NCBI RefSeq assembly: GCF_002355735.1
Contig: NZ_AP014879.1
Location: 1,116,001-1,180,000, forward strand
Source: Sulfuricaulis limicola
Lineage (GTDB): Bacteria; Pseudomonadota; Gammaproteobacteria; Acidiferrobacterales; Sulfurifustaceae
DNA length: 64,000 nucleotides
Direction of reading: 5' to 3'
Position 1 is the stretch's first letter; every line of letters begins with the position of its first letter. The notes under the pieces were generated by a model that saw only the letters and a program-made list of their open reading frames with translations, was not told where the DNA came from and ran no database searches. A program made the translations under genes and the position numbers. Below are positions 4,024 through 23,159 of the stretch, one piece after another.

Positions 4024-5112
4024 ATGCGTAAATCCGATTTTAATTATTCCCTGCCTCCGGAACTGGTGGCGCAATATCCGGCGTCGCCGCGCAGCGCCAG
4101 CCGTCTGCTGCACCTCGATGGTGCAAGCGGCGCGTGCCGCGATATGAAATTTGCCGATCTGCCGGCGCTGTTGCGGGCCGGCGATCTGCTGGTGTTCAAC
4201 GACACGTGCGTGATTCCGGCGCGGCTCCTCGGGTACAAGGACAGCGGCGGACGTATCGAGGTGCTGATCGAGCGTCTGCTGGATGTGCATCGCGTGTTGG
4301 CTCAGGTGCGGTCCAGCAAGCCTCCCCGGCCGGGACAGAAATTGATCCTGGATGGCGGCGCCACGGCGGTAGTGCAGGGCCGCGAGGGCGAGTTTTATGT
4401 ACTGGAGTTCGAAATCGGCGTGAAATTAAAAGAATCCCCTCTCCCCCTGAAAGGGGGAGAGGGAGAGGGAAAGGGAGAGGGGGTCGACGAATCGGTTACA
4501 GAAATCCTCGATCGCATCGGCCACGTGCCGCTGCCGCCGTATATCGCTCGCGCGGATGAAGGCGCCGACCGCGAACGCTACCAGACGGTGTACGCGCGGC
4601 ATCGCGGCGCCGTGGCGGCGCCGACGGCCGGGCTGCACTTCGACGAGGCCATGCTCGGACGGCTGAAGGAGATGGGCGTGGACAGCGCTTTCGTCACCTT
4701 GCACGTCGGTGCTGGCACGTTCCAGCCGCTGCGGGTGGAGGATATCCGCGAGCACCGCATGCACGCGGAATATGTGCGCGTGCTACCGGGCGACAGCGAT
4801 AAAATCAATTCAGCAAAAAAAGAGGGGCGTCGCGTGGTGGCAGTTGGCACCACGGTGGTCAGGGCGCTGGAAACGGCCGCGAGGGACGGGCGCCTGGACC
4901 CTTTTGAGGGCGAGACCGATATTTTTATTTACCCCGGATACCGTTTCCAGATCGTCGACGCGCTGCTGACCAATTTCCACCTGCCGGGCTCGACCTTGCT
5001 CATGCTGGTGTGCGCCTTCGGTGGAACGGAAAACGTGCTCAATGCCTACCGTCACGCGGTCGAGGGCCGCTACCGTTTTTACAGCTATGGAGATGCGATG
5101 TTCGTCGATTAA
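4024..5112 (+). CDS. queA: S-adenosylmethionine:tRNA ribosyltransferase-isomerase
   Basis: QueA adds the cyclopentene-epoxide part of queuosine to tRNA in the cytoplasm. The family blocks are all present: YPASPRSASRLL, GDLLVFNDTCVIPARLLG, GAVAAPTAGLHFDE, VTLHVGAGTFQP, VDALLTNFHLPGSTLLML and RFYSYGDAMF. ATG 4024 aligns with the family N-terminus (MRKSDF); the frame also opens at 4003. The oddity is roughly 25 extra residues (about 137-160, including SPLPLKGGEGEGKGEG) encoded by an intergenic-type palindromic repeat in frame, just before the conserved ILDRIGHVPLPPY. Its stop overlaps the stop of the convergent cyclophilin remnant. The usual partner tgt lies 6 kb downstream because of an insertion. 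Confidence 0.96.
   Translation: MRKSDFNYSLPPELVAQYPASPRSASRLLHLDGASGACRDMKFADLPALLRAGDLLVFNDTCVIPARLLGYKDSGGRIEVLIERLLDVHRVLAQVRSSKPPRPGQKLILDGGATAVVQGREGEFYVLEFEIGVKLKESPLPLKGGEGEGKGEGVDESVTEILDRIGHVPLPPYIARADEGADRERYQTVYARHRGAVAAPTAGLHFDEAMLGRLKEMGVDSAFVTLHVGAGTFQPLRVEDIREHRMHAEYVRVLPGDSDKINSAKKEGRRVVAVGTTVVRALETAARDGRLDPFEGETDIFIYPGYRFQIVDALLTNFHLPGSTLLMLVCAFGGTENVLNAYRHAVEGRYRFYSYGDAMFVD
4433..4482. repeat. CCCTCTCCC-type palindromic repeat inside queA
   Basis: CCCCTCTCCCCCT faces AGGGGGAGAGGG, followed by further GGGAGAGG iterations. It is the same family as the intergenic copies at 18846-18885 and 34335-34465, but here lies within a coding frame without introducing a stop. Confidence 0.85.
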
Positions 5113-6025
5113 TCGCTTATAGCGTTCCGGTCCCGATCTCCACGGGCACGTCTGCGCACAAGAGCAAGCATGGTCAGGAACAGGGCGACAAGAATCCAGT
5201 CGCCGCTTTGTAATGCTTGCGATGATTCAGTGGTAATTGAGCATCCCCCGGACTGAGGTTGATCCTGGGTCGAGGTGGAGGTGAATGTTGCCAATACCGC
5301 TTGGGCTCCCGTGTGTGCAATGCTGTTGTTTGCGACGAGATCGTCATCACCGCGTTTTCCATCAACGAAGTGCAGGATAATCTTGTCGCCACTTATCTCG
5401 GCGCCAGTTTCGCCGTCGAACGTGAAGTCGTACCAGTGAGGTGTCGGGTTATTGGGCGTCGGACCGTAGGCATAGTAGGAGTCGGGGCGCGTGGCGGCAC
5501 CGTCATACAGTGTTACAACAACACCCGCAGTGCCCATTATCCCTGATAGCTTCCAGGTGAACATTCCATTGTTGAAGCGCGTGGAACCCAGGTTCACTGT
5601 TCTGAAGTTGTTGATTGTCATGCCGGGGGCCGCGGAAATCGTGGATGTGCCACCACCCGACACAGTCTGGATTGTTGTCACGTTTGCCTGATCGCGGTCC
5701 GGAATGCCATCGCCATTCCCGTCGCCGTTGGGTGCCATGTCTTCGGTTTGCGGGCAGGCGGCATCTGCGTCATTGTTTACACATACCCGAGATGTATATA
5801 TATAGGCACCATTGAGAGTTGGGGCTTGAAACGGGGAAAAAAATAACGGTGAGCGCGGCAAGGCGGCGATCGCATCCACGACATTCATTCCCGAACCGAT
5901 CACATGGCCAAAAACGGTGTATCCAACAAGACCAATGGAGTTATCGTTGAGGTTGATAAACCACTCGCTGGTTGCGCTGTCTGGGAGCAGGTTGCCAAAC
6001 TCGTCCTGTGTCAGCGCCATTGATA
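5109..6025 (-). pseudogene. C-terminal part of a secreted cyclophilin-type peptidyl-prolyl isomerase (split gene)
   Basis: Reading from the IS boundary at 6025, the frame begins SMALTQDEFGNLLPDSATSEWFIN, which matches the second half of the cyclophilin fold (compare MARTQ...SATAQFFIN of PpiB). GYTVFGHVIGSGMNVVDAI follows. About 170 residues of unknown beta-rich extension come next, then a C-terminus with a GGC motif, a membrane helix (DWILVALFLTMLALV) and an arginine-rich end, resembling the tripartite CTERM sorting signals. The matching N-terminus is at 10487-10801 on the same strand. The reading frame after the break is intact, but the enzyme is broken. Confidence 0.88.
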
Positions 6026-6088
6026 TGAACCTCCCCCGATTTCGTGGACACCCCGTTAAGGTGGACAATACCGAAATCGGAGGACCCT

Positions 6089-6385
6089 ATGTCAGCACAA
6101 AAACGACGTCAATACACCGAGGAGTTCAAGACCGAGGCCGTGCGCCTGGTGCAGGAAAGTGGTAAACCCGTGGCCGAGATCGCACGGGAGCTCGGCATCG
6201 CGGAGAATCTGCTGTACCGCTGGCGAACCGAGGAACATAACGCACGTCGCCTCGGGACCACGCGGACGAACCTCAAGGCCGAGCACGAAGAGCTGACGTG
6301 TCTTCGCCGCGAGCTCGACACCGTGAGAAAGGAGCGTGATTTTTTAAAGCGTGCGGCGGCGTTCTTCGCGAGGGAGCGGTCATGA
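6089..6385 (+). CDS. IS3-family transposase OrfA (helix-turn-helix), copy 1
   Basis: A 98-residue protein starting MSAQKRRQYTEEFKTEAVRL with ribosome site CGGAGGA just upstream. It carries the HTH_Tnp_1 domain (AEIARELGIAENLLYRWR) and a C-terminal leucine-rich helix for oligomerisation. Its stop overlaps the OrfB start (ATGA), and a TTTTTTAAAG run at about 6339 could serve a programmed -1 frameshift to OrfAB, as in other IS3 members. Identical to copy 2. Confidence 0.95.
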   Translation: MSAQKRRQYTEEFKTEAVRLVQESGKPVAEIARELGIAENLLYRWRTEEHNARRLGTTRTNLKAEHEELTCLRRELDTVRKERDFLKRAAAFFARERS

Positions 6386-7245
6386 GATACCGCGCCATCC
6401 GGGAGAACGTCCGCCGCTTCCCCGTGCGCCTGATGTGCCGGGCCCTGAAGGTCTCGGCGGCCGGCTACTACGCCTGGCACACCCGGCCGGAGAGCCAACG
6501 CGCGGTGCATAACCGGGCGTTGTTGGTCTCGATTCGGGCGATCCACGCCGGGAGCCGCTGCACCTATGGCAGCCCCAGCATCTGCGATGCACTGCAGAAA
6601 CGCGGGCACCGGATCGGCGAAAATCGCGTGGCGCGGCTGATGCGCCTCCACGGCATCCGGGCCAAAACGGTGAAAAAGTGGAAGGCCACGACCGATTCCG
6701 GCCATAAACTGCCGGTGGCCGCCAACACACTCGATCGGCGGTTTGCGGTCGACGAACCGAACCGGGTGTGGGCCGGTGACATCACCTACGTCTGGACGCG
6801 GGAAGGCTGGCTGTATCTCGCCGTGGTGCTCGATCTCTACTCGCGGGCCGTGATCGGCTGGGCGATGGGGCCGCGGCTCACCGCCGATCTCGCCACCCAG
6901 GCACTGACCATGGCGCTGTGGCGGCGCAAACCGGCCAAGGGGCTGCTGCATCACTCCGATCGCGGCGTGCAGTATGCGAGCGGCGATTACCAGGGACTGC
7001 TCGGCCGCGCCGGCATGACGTGTTCGATGAGCCGCAAGGCGAACTGCTGGGACAACGCCTGCGTCGAGAGTTTCTTCGGCACGCTCAAGAAGGAGCTGAT
7101 CCACGACCGGCGCTATCTCACGCGGGAAGAAGCGAAACAGGACATCTTCGAATACATCGAAGTGTTCTACAATCGGCAACGTCGTCATTCGACCCTCGGC
7201 TACCGTTCACCGGCCGAGTTCGAGGCGATGAACCAAGTTGCTTGA
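6382..7245 (+). CDS. IS3-family transposase OrfB (DDE integrase), copy 1
   Basis: A 287-residue catalytic subunit. The N-terminal HTH_21 region is followed by a retroviral-type integrase core with the D-D-E pattern: WAGDITYV (first Asp), HHSDRGVQYAS (second Asp) and ACVESFFGTLKKE (Glu). It ends with the usual YNRQRRHSTLGYRSPAEFE. The frame is intact and identical to copy 2, which points to recent transposition. Confidence 0.96.
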   Translation: MRYRAIRENVRRFPVRLMCRALKVSAAGYYAWHTRPESQRAVHNRALLVSIRAIHAGSRCTYGSPSICDALQKRGHRIGENRVARLMRLHGIRAKTVKKWKATTDSGHKLPVAANTLDRRFAVDEPNRVWAGDITYVWTREGWLYLAVVLDLYSRAVIGWAMGPRLTADLATQALTMALWRRKPAKGLLHHSDRGVQYASGDYQGLLGRAGMTCSMSRKANCWDNACVESFFGTLKKELIHDRRYLTREEAKQDIFEYIEVFYNRQRRHSTLGYRSPAEFEAMNQVA

Positions 7246-7275
7246 GCCGGTGTCCATGAATTTGGGGGAAGTCCA

Positions 7276-9257
7276 CCCGGACCTTTGATGCTTATTCAAG
7301 GCTCGATATCCTGACATATCCCAGCGGTTACACCTTGAAACACCTCTACGACACCGTCGGCAATCTTGTCGAATTAAGGGATGCGCAAAATAACCAAAGT
7401 TTCTGGAAGGCTGTCTCGGCCGATGCGCGCGGTCGGCTCACTGAAGAGCAGCTGGCGGGCGGCACCACGGTTACGACCCATAGCTATTACCCGGAAACCG
7501 GTTTGCCTGAGTACAGCTATACCACAAGTCCCGCGGGCCAGGTTCGTTATGGCTACTACATGTGGAACAACGGCGGTAATCTCTCGCTGCGGATGTCATA
7601 TAGCGGCAGCAGCTACTTTATGGAAACTTTCGGCTATGACAGCCTCAATCGGCTGAGAAGCGTTACCGGTCCTGCAAGCAAGACCTATCGATACGACGCC
7701 ATCAGCAACCTTACCTACAAATCCGATGTCGGAACCTACAGCTATCTCGTCAACGGCAATGCCCGTCCACACGCCGTGGATTCCATCGTCGGAGGCATAA
7801 GCGCGAACTTCACTTATGACGCAAATGGCAACATGCTTTCGGGAAGCGGAAAAAGCGTCGCTTATACCTCCTTCAACCAGCCGGCCACGATTGCCAGCGG
7901 CGCCAGTACCGCGACGTTCAGCTATGACGCCAATTTCAAGCGCGTCAGCAAGATAACGAACAACATTCCTACCCACTACATGGACAGTGGCCGCTACGAA
8001 GCCACGATTAGCGGCGCCACCACCACTCATCGCCATTACATTTATGCCGGACAGACGCCGGTCGCACTGTATACTTTTGCCACGATCGGCGGCGGCGCGG
8101 GCGATCCGACCGTAAGCTATCTGCACGCGGACCCGTTGGGCTCAACGGAAGCCATCACCGATCCCGCGGGAAACATACGGCGACGCTTGTCGTACGATGT
8201 CTGGGGCAAGCGAAGAAACGCCGACGGCACCGACGCCACCGCCGCCATTATCGCGCCGATAAAGCTCGGTTACACCGCCCAGGAACACGACGACGAGCTC
8301 GCCCTTATCAACATGAAGGCGCGCGAGTACGATCCGCTCCTGGGGCGTTTCCTCCAGCCCGACCCCTTGAAGGAAATGGGCGACCCGCACCCGTATGCGT
8401 ATGCGAACAACAACCCCCTCAAATATACCGATCCGACGGGGACGAGTTTTGTCGATTTCACCGGCTGGCAATGGGGATCGGGCATTGGCGAAAACCGCTA
8501 TGTCGGCACCGCCGGCGGTTACGACCAATGGATCCTCGATGACTATGGCAACATTGGCACGCAACGCGTCAGTCACTACGGTTCTTATTCGAGCTGGAAC
8601 TCCAGTTGGGATTCCTGGAATTCCAGCTCCTCGCTGGGTTCTTTCGGTAGCGGCGGCCTCTCCCAGACAAGCTACAACACCTCGTATAGCTCCGGGGGCT
8701 ACGGCGGGTACGTCTCAAGCTACAATACGCTAGGGGCGGGATGGAGCACAGGTACACCGAGCAGCAGTTCAAGCTGGATCAACACCATTCCTTTCGTGAG
8801 CGCGTTCGACCAGGCCGCGAATGGGAACTTATGGTCGGCGTTGGGAAGCGCGACGGTGGATTTTGGTACCATCTTCGCTCCTACCCGGCTCCTGGGGATG
8901 GGGAGAGTGGGGCGTACTGCGACCAGTACTCAATCAGTTTTTTGGTCGGGCCGCGGCACGCAGGGGGTGGCGGAAAGCTGGGCACGAGCCAATGGCGGAC
9001 AAACTTTATCCATGAGTCAATATGCCGTGGGCGCGACAGCAACGCCCCAAGCCGTACAGAGTGCGAGTTTAGCATTCGCGCAAAGTGCAAGGGGGAACGT
9101 CACCGTATTCCAGTCAGCGTCGTTTGTTCCAGTCAACAGTATCTGGGCAACTACGGAGTACCCCGCCCTAATGGGGAATCCGAATGTTACAGGTATTACA
9201 TACGACATTCTGAATATGGGCGGGGAAACAATTTGTACAATATTTTGCCCCAAGTGA
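7276..9257 (+). pseudogene. 5'-truncated Rhs/YD-repeat protein with variable toxin-like tip
   Basis: The frame is open from the IS right end (TRTFDAYSRLDILTYPSGYTL) without a native start; a TTG at 7335 could restart it. It has YD repeats (TFDAYSRL, FGYDSLNRL), then the Rhs core (ADPLGSTEAITD, INMKAREYDPLLGRFLQPDP, NNPLKYTDPTG). A Ser/Gly/Tyr-rich linker follows, then a unique C-terminal domain from about base 8934 (VFWSGRGTQGVAESWARANG...). Rhs proteins deliver C-terminal toxins through T6SS or by other routes. Lacking its N-terminal half, this copy is probably not deliverable, though the tip is intact. The tip recalls CD38-like ADP-ribosyl cyclases, a guess from motif spacing. Confidence 0.85.
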
Positions 9258-9264
9258 GCTGGTC

Positions 9265-9531
9265 ATGAACCATGAGTTTCAAAAAACTGGATTAAACACC
9301 GTGACCAGCTCACAAGGATTCACTGTTGAAGTGAAATTCGCCGGAGGCGTGCATTATCACGATGCCATCGGGGACATACTGATTGATTCTGAATGGCTGG
9401 TAAATCCGCCGCGAATACTTCTGTATCGGCGACGCGCTTACGTATCCGATTCGCGCCTAAATGATGTGTATGCCAATGCGCAGAGGGCATTGGAGTATCT
9501 TGGTCATCGAGTTGAAACGTGGACCGACTGA
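9265..9531 (+). CDS. small protein, possible immunity partner of the Rhs tip
   Basis: An 88-residue soluble protein (start MNHEFQKTGLNTV) beginning eight bases after the Rhs stop on the same strand, the classic place for an immunity gene. No family is recognised. It contains a compact beta-rich region (VEVKFAGGVHYHDAIGDILI), a basic RRRAY patch and a C-terminal helix. Like the Rhs tip it is AT-richer than the flanks. The immunity role is inferred only from position and size. Confidence 0.55.
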   Translation: MNHEFQKTGLNTVTSSQGFTVEVKFAGGVHYHDAIGDILIDSEWLVNPPRILLYRRRAYVSDSRLNDVYANAQRALEYLGHRVETWTD

Positions 9532-9650
9532 AAAACCCGAATCAAGGGGTCAGAGTCCTTGAAAACTATCATCCGCCACTTTAGCGTAGCCAGCATATTC
9601 AACATAGAAAAACTTCATGGCCCGCCTGCCGCGCATCGTGATCCCGCGCG

Positions 9651-10486
9651 GAAAACCGGGTCAGAGAGGAATTTTCGCTAATATTCCGACTTGCTAATAT
9701 TTTCCCGTCTTTGCGTCCCCGAGAGAAACGACCACCATGCCCCGCAAACCCCGCTTCACCCTGTCCGGTGTGCCTCAGCACGTGATCCAACGCGGCAACA
9801 ACCGCGAACCCTGTTTTTTCGCTGAGCAAGATTACCGCCGCTATCTCGAAGACCTGCAAGCCTGCGCCGAGAAATACGATTGTCGTCTCCACGCCTACGT
9901 CCTCATGACCAACCACGTACATTTGTTGGTCACACCGATGCAGGAACAGGGAATTGCCGAGATGATGCAGGCCCTGGGCCGGCGCTACGTGTATTACATC
10001 AACAAGACCTATCGACGCACCGGTACCTTGTGGGAAGGACGTTACAAGGCCAGCCTGATCGACTCGGAAGCCTATTTGCTGACCTGCATGCGTTATATCG
10101 AACTCAACCCGTTGCGGGCCGAGATGGTGAACCACGCCGGGGAATACAAATGGTCCAGCTACGGTGCCAATGCCCAAGGGCGAGCCGATGCACGGCTGTC
10201 ACCGCATCCGCTGTATACCGCGCTCGGAGCCACCGCGGCCGATCGCCAGCATGCCTACCGGGAATTGTTTCGGCATCACATGGACAATGCCTTGTTGCAC
10301 GAAATTCGAGAGGCCCTCAACCATGAGCTGGTCCTCGGACGTTCTTACTTCAAGGACAAGATCGAGACCATGACACAGCGGCAGACCCGGCTCGGACTAC
10401 CCGGCCGACCACGCGCAGAGGAGGAAGCCGGGGTGTATTACATTGATTAAGTATATTAGCGAAAATTCCTCTCTGACCCGGTTTTC
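9651..10486 (+). mobile_element. REP-associated transposase element with 34-bp perfect inverted repeats
   Basis: The left end (9651-9684, starting GAAAACCGGGTCAGAGAGGA) is the exact reverse complement of the right end (10453-10486). The sequences diverge immediately outside. Inside is one Y1 transposase gene. The left arm is followed by a direct repeat of GCTAATATT (9677-9685 and 9692-9700). Its right end lies exactly where the cyclophilin N-terminal fragment breaks off. A related GGGTCAGAGT motif occurs at about 9546. Confidence 0.8.
9737..10450 (+). CDS. REP-associated tyrosine transposase (RAYT, IS200-like Y1 family)
   Basis: A 237-residue protein (MPRKPRFTLSGVPQHVIQRG) with the family signature of RAYTs: HVIQRGNNREPCF, the metal-binding HUH motif in YVLMTNHVHLLVTP (about residues 54-67), LWEGRYKASLID and YIELNPLRA. 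These single-strand-specific enzymes nick and mobilise small palindromic REP sequences. The gene lies inside a short element with long inverted repeats (9651-10486), more compact than the usual chromosomal RAYT setting. The many palindromes in the window make a functional link tempting but unproven. Confidence 0.93.
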   Translation: MPRKPRFTLSGVPQHVIQRGNNREPCFFAEQDYRRYLEDLQACAEKYDCRLHAYVLMTNHVHLLVTPMQEQGIAEMMQALGRRYVYYINKTYRRTGTLWEGRYKASLIDSEAYLLTCMRYIELNPLRAEMVNHAGEYKWSSYGANAQGRADARLSPHPLYTALGATAADRQHAYRELFRHHMDNALLHEIREALNHELVLGRSYFKDKIETMTQRQTRLGLPGRPRAEEEAGVYYID

Positions 10487-10801
10487 TGTCACACCCCCCT
10501 GTATGACAGCTAATCCGTCCTTTTCGAGCGTCGCATGGCGATGAATAACACTGTTGTCGTAGTCATTACGATTGACGTAGCCGAGAAAGTTGCCAACGGT
10601 CAACGGGGTATCGGTATCGTAAAGTTCCACATTGAACCCGCCGACGTTGGTTTCAATGCGCACGATCGTATTTGCCGCAAGAAGAGGCGGGGAGAGGACT
10701 GACGCCAGGACGGCGCAGGCCATGGCGCGCAGATACATCCGGCCGTGGAAATACCGGCGACAGAAAGAAGCTATGCAGGGAACAGCGCGCGAGACTTTCA
10801 T
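10487..10801 (-). pseudogene. N-terminal part of the split secreted cyclophilin
   Basis: It starts at ATG 10801 behind a strong ribosome site (GGGAGGAGGG). A positively charged leader and hydrophobic signal segment (MACAVLASVLSPPLLAA) are followed by cyclophilin strand 1 (NTIVRIETNVGGFNVELYD) and the TPLTVGNFLGYV, HRHATL and VIQGG blocks. The match stops after VIQGGV, exactly at the inverted-repeat end of the RAYT element. The continuation is at 5109-6025. Compared with PpiB about 25-30 residues of the middle are missing, so the insertion was accompanied by a small deletion. Confidence 0.87.
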
Positions 10802-10984
10802 GACCCTCCTCCCACTCCCTTGCGTCAAGGAGCTTTGTAGTGTCCGGGTATTCTGACACAGCGCGATTAAAGGGTTCAATCAGGTATCGCCGCACATTTC
10901 ACTCGAGCCGGGGAAACAGCTGTTTTGTAACCTCTTTATGTCCATAAATGGAACCCTAAATGGAACCCTCTGTTGCCACGGTAG

Positions 10985-21159: not shown

Positions 21160-21272
21160 TGCGAAATCTTGATCCTACGTTAGTTTTTTTAAGAGCAGCA
21201 ATGATTGAGTGAACCTCCCCCGATTTCGTGGACACCCCGTTAAGGTGGACAATACCGAAATCGGAGGACCCT

Positions 21273-21569
21273 ATGTCAGCACAAAAACGACGTCAATACA
21301 CCGAGGAGTTCAAGACCGAGGCCGTGCGCCTGGTGCAGGAAAGTGGTAAACCCGTGGCCGAGATCGCACGGGAGCTCGGCATCGCGGAGAATCTGCTGTA
21401 CCGCTGGCGAACCGAGGAACATAACGCACGTCGCCTCGGGACCACGCGGACGAACCTCAAGGCCGAGCACGAAGAGCTGACGTGTCTTCGCCGCGAGCTC
21501 GACACCGTGAGAAAGGAGCGTGATTTTTTAAAGCGTGCGGCGGCGTTCTTCGCGAGGGAGCGGTCATGA
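21273..21569 (+). CDS. IS3-family transposase OrfA, copy 2
   Basis: Same 98-residue helix-turn-helix protein as at 6089-6385, with the same ribosome site and the same ATGA overlap with OrfB. The frame is intact, so this copy may be autonomous. Confidence 0.95.
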   Translation: MSAQKRRQYTEEFKTEAVRLVQESGKPVAEIARELGIAENLLYRWRTEEHNARRLGTTRTNLKAEHEELTCLRRELDTVRKERDFLKRAAAFFARERS

Positions 21570-22429
21570 GATACCGCGCCATCCGGGAGAACGTCCGCCG
21601 CTTCCCCGTGCGCCTGATGTGCCGGGCCCTGAAGGTCTCGGCGGCCGGCTACTACGCCTGGCACACCCGGCCGGAGAGCCAACGCGCGGTGCATAACCGG
21701 GCGTTGTTGGTCTCGATTCGGGCGATCCACGCCGGGAGCCGCTGCACCTATGGCAGCCCCAGCATCTGCGATGCACTGCAGAAACGCGGGCACCGGATCG
21801 GCGAAAATCGCGTGGCGCGGCTGATGCGCCTCCACGGCATCCGGGCCAAAACGGTGAAAAAGTGGAAGGCCACGACCGATTCCGGCCATAAACTGCCGGT
21901 GGCCGCCAACACACTCGATCGGCGGTTTGCGGTCGACGAACCGAACCGGGTGTGGGCCGGTGACATCACCTACGTCTGGACGCGGGAAGGCTGGCTGTAT
22001 CTCGCCGTGGTGCTCGATCTCTACTCGCGGGCCGTGATCGGCTGGGCGATGGGGCCGCGGCTCACCGCCGATCTCGCCACCCAGGCACTGACCATGGCGC
22101 TGTGGCGGCGCAAACCGGCCAAGGGGCTGCTGCATCACTCCGATCGCGGCGTGCAGTATGCGAGCGGCGATTACCAGGGACTGCTCGGCCGCGCCGGCAT
22201 GACGTGTTCGATGAGCCGCAAGGCGAACTGCTGGGACAACGCCTGCGTCGAGAGTTTCTTCGGCACGCTCAAGAAGGAGCTGATCCACGACCGGCGCTAT
22301 CTCACGCGGGAAGAAGCGAAACAGGACATCTTCGAATACATCGAAGTGTTCTACAATCGGCAACGTCGTCATTCGACCCTCGGCTACCGTTCACCGGCCG
22401 AGTTCGAGGCGATGAACCAAGTTGCTTGA
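21566..22429 (+). CDS. IS3-family transposase OrfB, copy 2
   Basis: The 287-residue DDE integrase subunit, identical to the copy at 6382-7245, with all three catalytic acidic residues present. It ends 30 bases before the right inverted-repeat boundary, from which the following hydrolase now appears to take its start codon. Confidence 0.96.
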   Translation: MRYRAIRENVRRFPVRLMCRALKVSAAGYYAWHTRPESQRAVHNRALLVSIRAIHAGSRCTYGSPSICDALQKRGHRIGENRVARLMRLHGIRAKTVKKWKATTDSGHKLPVAANTLDRRFAVDEPNRVWAGDITYVWTREGWLYLAVVLDLYSRAVIGWAMGPRLTADLATQALTMALWRRKPAKGLLHHSDRGVQYASGDYQGLLGRAGMTCSMSRKANCWDNACVESFFGTLKKELIHDRRYLTREEAKQDIFEYIEVFYNRQRRHSTLGYRSPAEFEAMNQVA

Positions 22430-22439
22430 GCCGGTGTCC

Positions 22440-23159
22440 ATGAATTTGGGGGAAGTCCAGAGCGTATCTAACCCACCAAAGCTTGTCTTGCTGCCAGGTC
22501 TCGACGGTACGGGCATTCTCTTCCGCTCACTGTTGGCTTCGTTGCCAAAGGACATCCGGCCCAAGGTCATTACCTATCCCCCAAATCAGAAGTTTTCTCT
22601 TTCTGAGCTTGCCCAGCTCGTTGCACAGGAGTTACCGCGTGAAGAGGTTGTATTGTTAGCCGAGTCTTTCTCTGGTTTGGTTGCCTTGGCGCTCCTGGCT
22701 CGGGGATTGCCACATATAAGAGGCGTTCTCTTTGTTGCGTCCTTCGCGGAACCGCCTCGTCCGCAGATGCTTCGCTTTGCTTCGAAGGTGTCATGGATTG
22801 GTTCTGTTATGCGCTTGGCCCCATCTTTTTTCTTGCGGCAATTTTGCCTTGGCAGGAATGCAGACACCCAAGAATTGTCACTGCTGCGGGAAGCGCTCTT
22901 GACGGTATCCCCTGAAGTACTCACTCATCGCCTGAAGCTCATTTCGGAATGCCTGTCTTTTGAAAAGATACGTTTTCAAATTCCATGCTATTACCTTCAG
23001 GCAAACCAAGATCGGTTGGTTCCGCCTAGCGCGAAAAATTGGTTCCAGCAACACTTTGATGGTTGCGTAGTGGAATCAATGGAAGGCCCCCACTTTTTGA
23101 TGCAGGCCAAGCCGCGAGAATGCGCAGAGTGGGTGGCAAAAAAACTAAAAAGTTTCTAG
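22440..23159 (+). CDS. alpha/beta hydrolase whose start is supplied by the IS
   Basis: A cytoplasmic alpha/beta-hydrolase of 239 residues: LVLLPGLDGTGILF (oxyanion region), nucleophile elbow LLAESFSGL, acid residue in LQANQDRLVPP and histidine in MEGPHFLMQ. The substrate is unknown. The first residues (MNLGEVQ) are encoded by the inverted repeat of the IS3 copy. Removing the IS and one GAG restores TTG AGC GTA TCT (TTG at 21205), a plausible original start. The gene is AT-richer than its surroundings. Confidence 0.85.
   Translation: MNLGEVQSVSNPPKLVLLPGLDGTGILFRSLLASLPKDIRPKVITYPPNQKFSLSELAQLVAQELPREEVVLLAESFSGLVALALLARGLPHIRGVLFVASFAEPPRPQMLRFASKVSWIGSVMRLAPSFFLRQFCLGRNADTQELSLLREALLTVSPEVLTHRLKLISECLSFEKIRFQIPCYYLQANQDRLVPPSAKNWFQQHFDGCVVESMEGPHFLMQAKPRECAEWVAKKLKSF

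What the first reader, a model, noticed from the sequence alone, without database searches (positions are those of the whole stretch)
8934..9531. Rhs tip resembling an ADP-ribosyl cyclase/NADase, with a candidate immunity gene
The tip has FWSG at its start, a GG-TL pair about 20 residues on, then a S-x-x-F-A-x-x-A-x-G-x-V segment and a TEYPAL glutamate. That order recalls CD38-type cyclases (from memory). The next gene, eight bases on, encodes 88 unknown residues. If right, this is a NAD-degrading polymorphic toxin pair stranded by an IS.
Basis: inference. Interest (0 to 1): 0.7.

Follow-up and report, generated by a model that had tools for sequence, protein, structure and literature searches.

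The report
Stranded Rhs NADase toxin–immunity pair
The end of a broken Rhs gene encodes a recognisable relative of the recently described bacterial CD38-like NAD-destroying toxins, followed by a distant relative of their usual immunity gene; it is a new member of a known kind, notable mainly because two of its active-site features are missing and its delivery part has been cut off.

Summary
The last 107 residues of the Rhs ORF (8934-9254) match the two solved bacterial ADP-ribosyl cyclase toxins by sequence (ARCtox 9ro8, E 2.8e-6; Tac1 9ouf, E 6e-5). Their predicted fold matches those toxins and CD38/Aplysia cyclase. The family is published: Tox-ARC predicted in 2012, proven NAD(P)-depleting in 2025, RHS fusions noted. 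The closest relative found, a Rhodanobacter Rhs tip (52% identical), is followed by a homologue of the 88-residue gene. That homologue links the gene, weakly but above shuffled controls, to Imm74, the usual immunity family of these toxins. The Rhs gene is 5'-truncated by an IS3 copy lacking a target duplication, inside a split cyclophilin gene of Sulfuricaulis limicola; no TssB or PAAR was found there. Best reading: an undeliverable orphan ARC/Imm74-like pair; activity untested.

The parts
7335..8933 (+). 5'-truncated Rhs gene: YD/RHS repeats, RHS-associated core (residues 287-369) and linker
   Evidence: Pfam RHS_repeat 1.2e-11; TIGR03696 Rhs core 3e-22; the frame opens directly after the IS3 end
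8934..9254 (+). ADP-ribosyl cyclase (Tox-ARC / Tac1 / ARCtox family) toxin tip
   Evidence: phmmer to 9ro8 and 9ouf; AlphaFold2 model and fold searches
8943..8945 (+). Trp of FWSG (equivalent of ARCtox W273), conserved
   Evidence: alignment A4
9009..9011 (+). Ser in place of the second active-site Glu (CD38 E146, Tac1 E516, ARCtox E299)
   Evidence: TLS here, TLE or SLE in the relatives of A4
9012..9140 (+). shortened segment without any Trp; relatives have 2-4 Trp here, including the cleft Trp (ARCtox W323)
9156..9158 (+). catalytic Glu of TEYPAL (CD38 E226, Tac1 E573, ARCtox E356), conserved
   Evidence: invariant in A4
9265..9531 (+). candidate immunity gene, divergent Imm74-like, 88 residues
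   Evidence: homologue after the Rhodanobacter tip; link to Imm74; model pLDDT 90.7
6026..7275 (+). IS3-family element that truncates the Rhs gene; no target duplication
   Evidence: terminal repeats and three identical 1250-bp copies in the genome; rve, HTH_Tnp_1
9651..10486 (+). Y1 (IS200-like) transposase gene between perfect 34-nt inverted repeats
5112..6026 (-). 3' half of a split cyclophilin (PPIase) gene
   Evidence: PF00160 positions 100-142
10487..10861 (-). 5' half of the same cyclophilin gene
   Evidence: PF00160 positions 2-54

Best explanation
The locus is the C-terminal end of an Rhs polymorphic toxin carrying a CD38-type ADP-ribosyl cyclase tip, with its immunity gene directly downstream. 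In its full form the Rhs shell would carry the tip into a competitor, the tip would cleave nicotinamide from NAD(P)+ with the TEYPAL glutamate, and the immunity protein would plug the cleft (inferred from Tac1/Tci1 and ARCtox/ARCimm). This copy has lost its Rhs N-terminus to an IS3-associated rearrangement and no T6SS marker was found, so it is probably an undeliverable orphan pair; whether the present tip still cleaves NAD(P)+ is about even odds. Shown: homology, predicted fold, catalytic Glu, gene order, truncation. Inferred: activity, neutralisation, loss of delivery.
For: Sequence matches to two experimentally proven ARC toxins. Predicted fold: Foldseek 5.3e-7 and 1.7e-6 to them, then Aplysia cyclase and CD38; VIA Z 14.7, 13.3, about 9. 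Invariant catalytic Glu. Rhodanobacter Rhs tip 52% identical with a homologous immunity gene overlapping its stop (score 93 versus a maximum of 57 in 5000 shuffles). Rhodanobacter immunity protein hits Pfam Imm74 at 0.0017; the pair profile against Imm74 scores 33.7 versus a maximum of 25 in 200 shuffles. Tox-ARC/Imm74 pairing is published (PMC3482391, PMC12356396). The IS3 end abuts the Rhs frame without target duplication. No TssB or PAAR match in the genome.
Against: The second active-site Glu and the cleft Trp are missing here although present in the relatives compared, so the tip may be weak or inactive. The window's immunity protein alone does not match Imm74; the link runs through the Rhodanobacter protein. 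Both ORFs are intact, so strong decay is not evident. The structure model was built on an alignment of ARC relatives, which favours the family fold. Delivery routes other than T6SS were not searched.
Confidence: 0.82

Rival explanations
1. The tip is a degenerate, catalytically dead ARC remnant; only the fold and the gene order survive.
For: Loss of the second Glu and of every Trp in the substrate segment; in ARCtox alanine at any of W273, E299, W323 or E356 abolished toxicity (PMC12605009); 5' truncation and no T6SS marker found.
Against: Both ORFs are intact with no stop or frameshift; the essential Glu is kept; in Tac1 only the E573 change abolished activity and most weakened variants remained toxic; the three IS copies are identical, so the truncation looks recent.
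Confidence: 0.4
2. The tip is an active variant that releases cyclic ADP-ribose instead of, or beside, linear ADP-ribose.
For: Ser at the position whose loss shifts products to cADPr: Tac1 E516A releases cADPr, and Nac1 with Ala there makes about equal cADPr and ADP-ribose; intact frame.
Against: The missing Trp segment makes NAD binding uncertain; the known cADPr-making Nac enzymes lack immunity genes, whereas this tip has one.
Confidence: 0.15
3. The downstream 88-residue gene is an unrelated ORF, not the immunity gene.
For: No direct family match in Pfam or NCBIfam and none to Imm74 on its own.
Against: A homologue sits in the same place after the Rhodanobacter ARC tip and links to Imm74.
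Confidence: 0.07

Closest known systems
Tac1/Tci1 (Streptococcus parasanguinis, T7SS; PDB 9ouf)
   Same: ARC fold, essential Glu (E573), downstream immunity gene of or near Imm74
   Different: Rhs carrier here instead of LXG; Ser instead of E516; no cleft-Trp segment; much more divergent immunity protein
ARCtox/ARCimm (Pantoea ananatis PAAR protein; PDB 9ro8)
   Same: Best sequence and fold match; catalytic Glu and FWSG Trp shared; Imm74-family neighbour annotated in a Pantoea relative
   Different: PAAR carrier there; it has E299 and W323, whose equivalents are missing here
Rhodanobacter sp. ANJX3 Rhs tip and neighbour (L014)
   Same: 52% identical tip on an Rhs protein, homologous immunity gene, both AT-richer at third positions than the Rhs core
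   Different: Keeps TLE and two Trp; its Rhs frame runs through the whole stretch fetched
Nac1 (Actinophytocola oryzae)
   Same: Lacks the second active-site Glu (Ala there)
   Different: Secreted stand-alone enzyme without immunity gene; here an Rhs tip with one

Membership tests
Tox-ARC / bacterial ADP-ribosyl cyclase toxins | Sequence homology to characterised members | tested here: met
   phmmer 2.8e-6 and 6.1e-5; 27 relatives by tblastn
Tox-ARC / bacterial ADP-ribosyl cyclase toxins | CD38-like fold | tested here: met
   Predicted model only
Tox-ARC / bacterial ADP-ribosyl cyclase toxins | Essential catalytic Glu (CD38 E226) | tested here: met
   E75 of the tip, invariant in A4
Tox-ARC / bacterial ADP-ribosyl cyclase toxins | Second active-site Glu (CD38 E146); typical, not universal (absent in Nac1), so not a criterion for family membership | tested here: not met
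   Ser 26
Tox-ARC / bacterial ADP-ribosyl cyclase toxins | Second cleft Trp (ARCtox W323); typical, not a criterion for membership | tested here: not met
   No Trp between TL and IW
Tox-ARC / bacterial ADP-ribosyl cyclase toxins | NAD(P)+ cleavage | not testable with these tools
   Needs purified protein
Imm74 immunity proteins | Match to PF15603 above its cut-off | tested here: not met
   No match for the window protein; none in the genome; Rhodanobacter homologue 18.8 bits versus a cut-off of 27.1. Hence called Imm74-like, not Imm74.
Imm74 immunity proteins | Profile-level relationship | tested here: met
   hhalign of the two-sequence profile 5.4e-6, above 200 shuffles; window sequence alone not significant
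Imm74 immunity proteins | Position directly after a Tox-ARC gene | tested here: met
Rhs polymorphic toxins | RHS-associated core followed by a variable tip | tested here: met
   TIGR03696 3e-22
Rhs polymorphic toxins | Intact N-terminal delivery region (this copy is a truncated member) | tested here: not met
   Frame begins at the IS3 end

The most novel reading that the evidence does not exclude
An Rhs-borne ARC tip, paired with an immunity protein, that lacks the cADPr-hydrolysing Glu and so releases cyclic ADP-ribose: a toxin acting wholly or partly through that product rather than only by NAD depletion.
Probability: 0.1. Interest if true: 0.65.

Novelty: new member of a known kind. Interest (0 to 1): 0.35.

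Why it matters
It adds an Rhs-borne member with an unusual active site to a toxin family characterised only in 2025, and extends the reach of the Imm74 family to more divergent proteins. It is a natural test of how much of the ARC active site a paired toxin can lose, and whether such a tip yields cyclic ADP-ribose.

Tried and rejected
Close relatives of the tip: none in genome contigs or viral contigs with a single sequence, none in 369 genomes of the class or 398 of the phylum. Window immunity protein alone: no Pfam, NCBIfam, plasmid or PDB match, and only a weak PHROG hit (0.075); three weak genome hits were not adjacent to ARC genes and lay in large or different ORFs. A solved relative of Imm74: none convincing. 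Fold search with the immunity model: no significant match. Recombination between IS copies as the source of the break: the other two copies have different flanks with short repeats at both ends, so a deletion next to this copy is more likely. Other Rhs-core hits in the genome are short; the query did not cover the missing N-terminal part, so its presence elsewhere is not excluded.

Full report
What is there. The Rhs reading frame runs from the end of an IS3 element to 9257; its core is recognised by TIGR03696 (3e-22) and RHS repeats. The next gene starts at 9265 and encodes 88 residues.

Family of the tip. phmmer against the PDB finds only two significant chains: the Pantoea ananatis ADP-ribosyl cyclase toxin (9ro8, E 2.8e-6) and Tac1 (9ouf, molecule named 'Ribonuclease', E 6.1e-5). 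Pfam's ADP-ribosyl cyclase model gives only a hint (0.094). An AlphaFold2 model of the tip on 22 sequences has mean pLDDT 76.6 and pTM 0.72. Foldseek ranks 9ro8 and 9ouf first, then Aplysia cyclase, CD38 and CD157; VIA-align gives Z 14.7, 13.3, about 9 (CD38) and about 8.3 (Aplysia). The alignment contains ARC relatives, so the fold result is not independent of the sequence result, but the sequence result stands alone.

What is known of the family. Tox-ARC was described in 2012 as a polymorphic toxin domain with Imm74 as its main immunity partner (PMC3482391). In 2025 Tac1 (PMC12356396) and ARCtox (PMC12605009) were shown to cleave NAD+ and NADP+ and to be neutralised by the product of the downstream gene; RHS fusions are mentioned. 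The finding therefore falls into a known kind.

Relatives. A scan of genome contigs with a family alignment gave 27 loci. The nearest, from Rhodanobacter sp. ANJX3, is 52% identical over residues 2-90 and also sits on an Rhs protein. Annotated carriers of other relatives include PAAR and filamentous-haemagglutinin proteins, each followed at the stop codon by an Imm74-family gene; most further loci have a 75-81-residue ORF of that type in the same place.

Active site. The catalytic Glu (tip E75, 9156-9158) and the FWSG Trp (W4) are conserved in all rows of the alignment that cover them. The second Glu, present after TL (or SL) in the relatives listed, is Ser 26 here (9009-9011). Between TLS and the final IW the window has 43 residues and no Trp; the relatives listed have two to four Trp. 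The script stopped before the last three rows; the alignment itself shows Glu in those rows too. The Rhodanobacter tip has two Trp there. In Tac1 loss of the second Glu lets cADPr escape and most variants stay toxic; in ARCtox alanine at either of the two missing positions abolishes toxicity, although the E299A variant still degrades NAD+ in cells. The outcome here cannot be predicted from these data.

Immunity gene. The window protein has no direct family match. The gene overlapping the stop of the Rhodanobacter tip encodes a homologue: 28% identity over 85 alignment columns, 38.5 bits, score 93 versus a maximum of 57 in 5000 shuffles. That homologue hits Imm74 at 0.0017, below the curated cut-off, and the two-sequence profile aligns to an Imm74 profile with E 5.4e-6 and score 33.7, against a maximum of 25 in 200 column shuffles. 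The window protein alone does not. Its model is confident (pLDDT 90.7, strands, then a helix and a strand), with no significant PDB match.

Surroundings. The IS3 element spans 6026-7275 with imperfect terminal repeats. Two further copies in the genome are identical over 1250 bases; these two show short direct repeats at their ends (GAG; CCTG) and this one does not. Left of it lies the 3' half of a cyclophilin gene (PF00160 100-142); right of a Y1-transposase element with perfect 34-nt inverted repeats (9651-10486) lies the 5' half (PF00160 2-54). About 45 profile positions of the cyclophilin are missing. The whole block 6026-10486 thus sits in a broken cyclophilin gene between queA and tgt. 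The tip and the immunity gene have GC3 of 0.53 and 0.48 against 0.71 for the Rhs core; in Rhodanobacter 0.44 and 0.45 against 0.85, as expected for an exchanged cassette.

Host and delivery. TssB and PAAR models find nothing in it, while the E. coli control rings in both. Other export routes were not searched.

Judgement. Membership of the ARC toxin family and the toxin-immunity pairing are well supported; present activity and delivery are doubtful. The unusual active site is the one feature that could raise the interest, and a simple product assay would settle it.

Noticed in passing
window 5112-6026 and 10487-10861: A cyclophilin-type PPIase gene between queA and tgt is split by the 6026-10486 block, with about 45 profile positions missing.
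   Followed up: partly
window 9651-10486: Y1 transposase gene bounded by perfect 34-nt inverted repeats (GAAAACCGGGTCAGAGAGGAATTTTCGCTAATAT), which seems unusual for an IS200-like element.
   Followed up: partly
window 21210-22459: Second identical copy of the IS3 element in direct orientation, with a GAG repeat on both sides.
   Followed up: partly
L003 1015-1743: A 242-residue ORF elsewhere in the same genome with an RHS core motif and an unidentified tip.
   Followed up: no
L047 1796-2122 and L048 1819-2115: ARC-like FYSG tips in two genomes of the family of the Rhodanobacter locus are followed by 99-109-residue proteins that share a G-[YF]-x-V motif with the window's immunity protein but match no family convincingly; possibly another immunity type.
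   Followed up: partly
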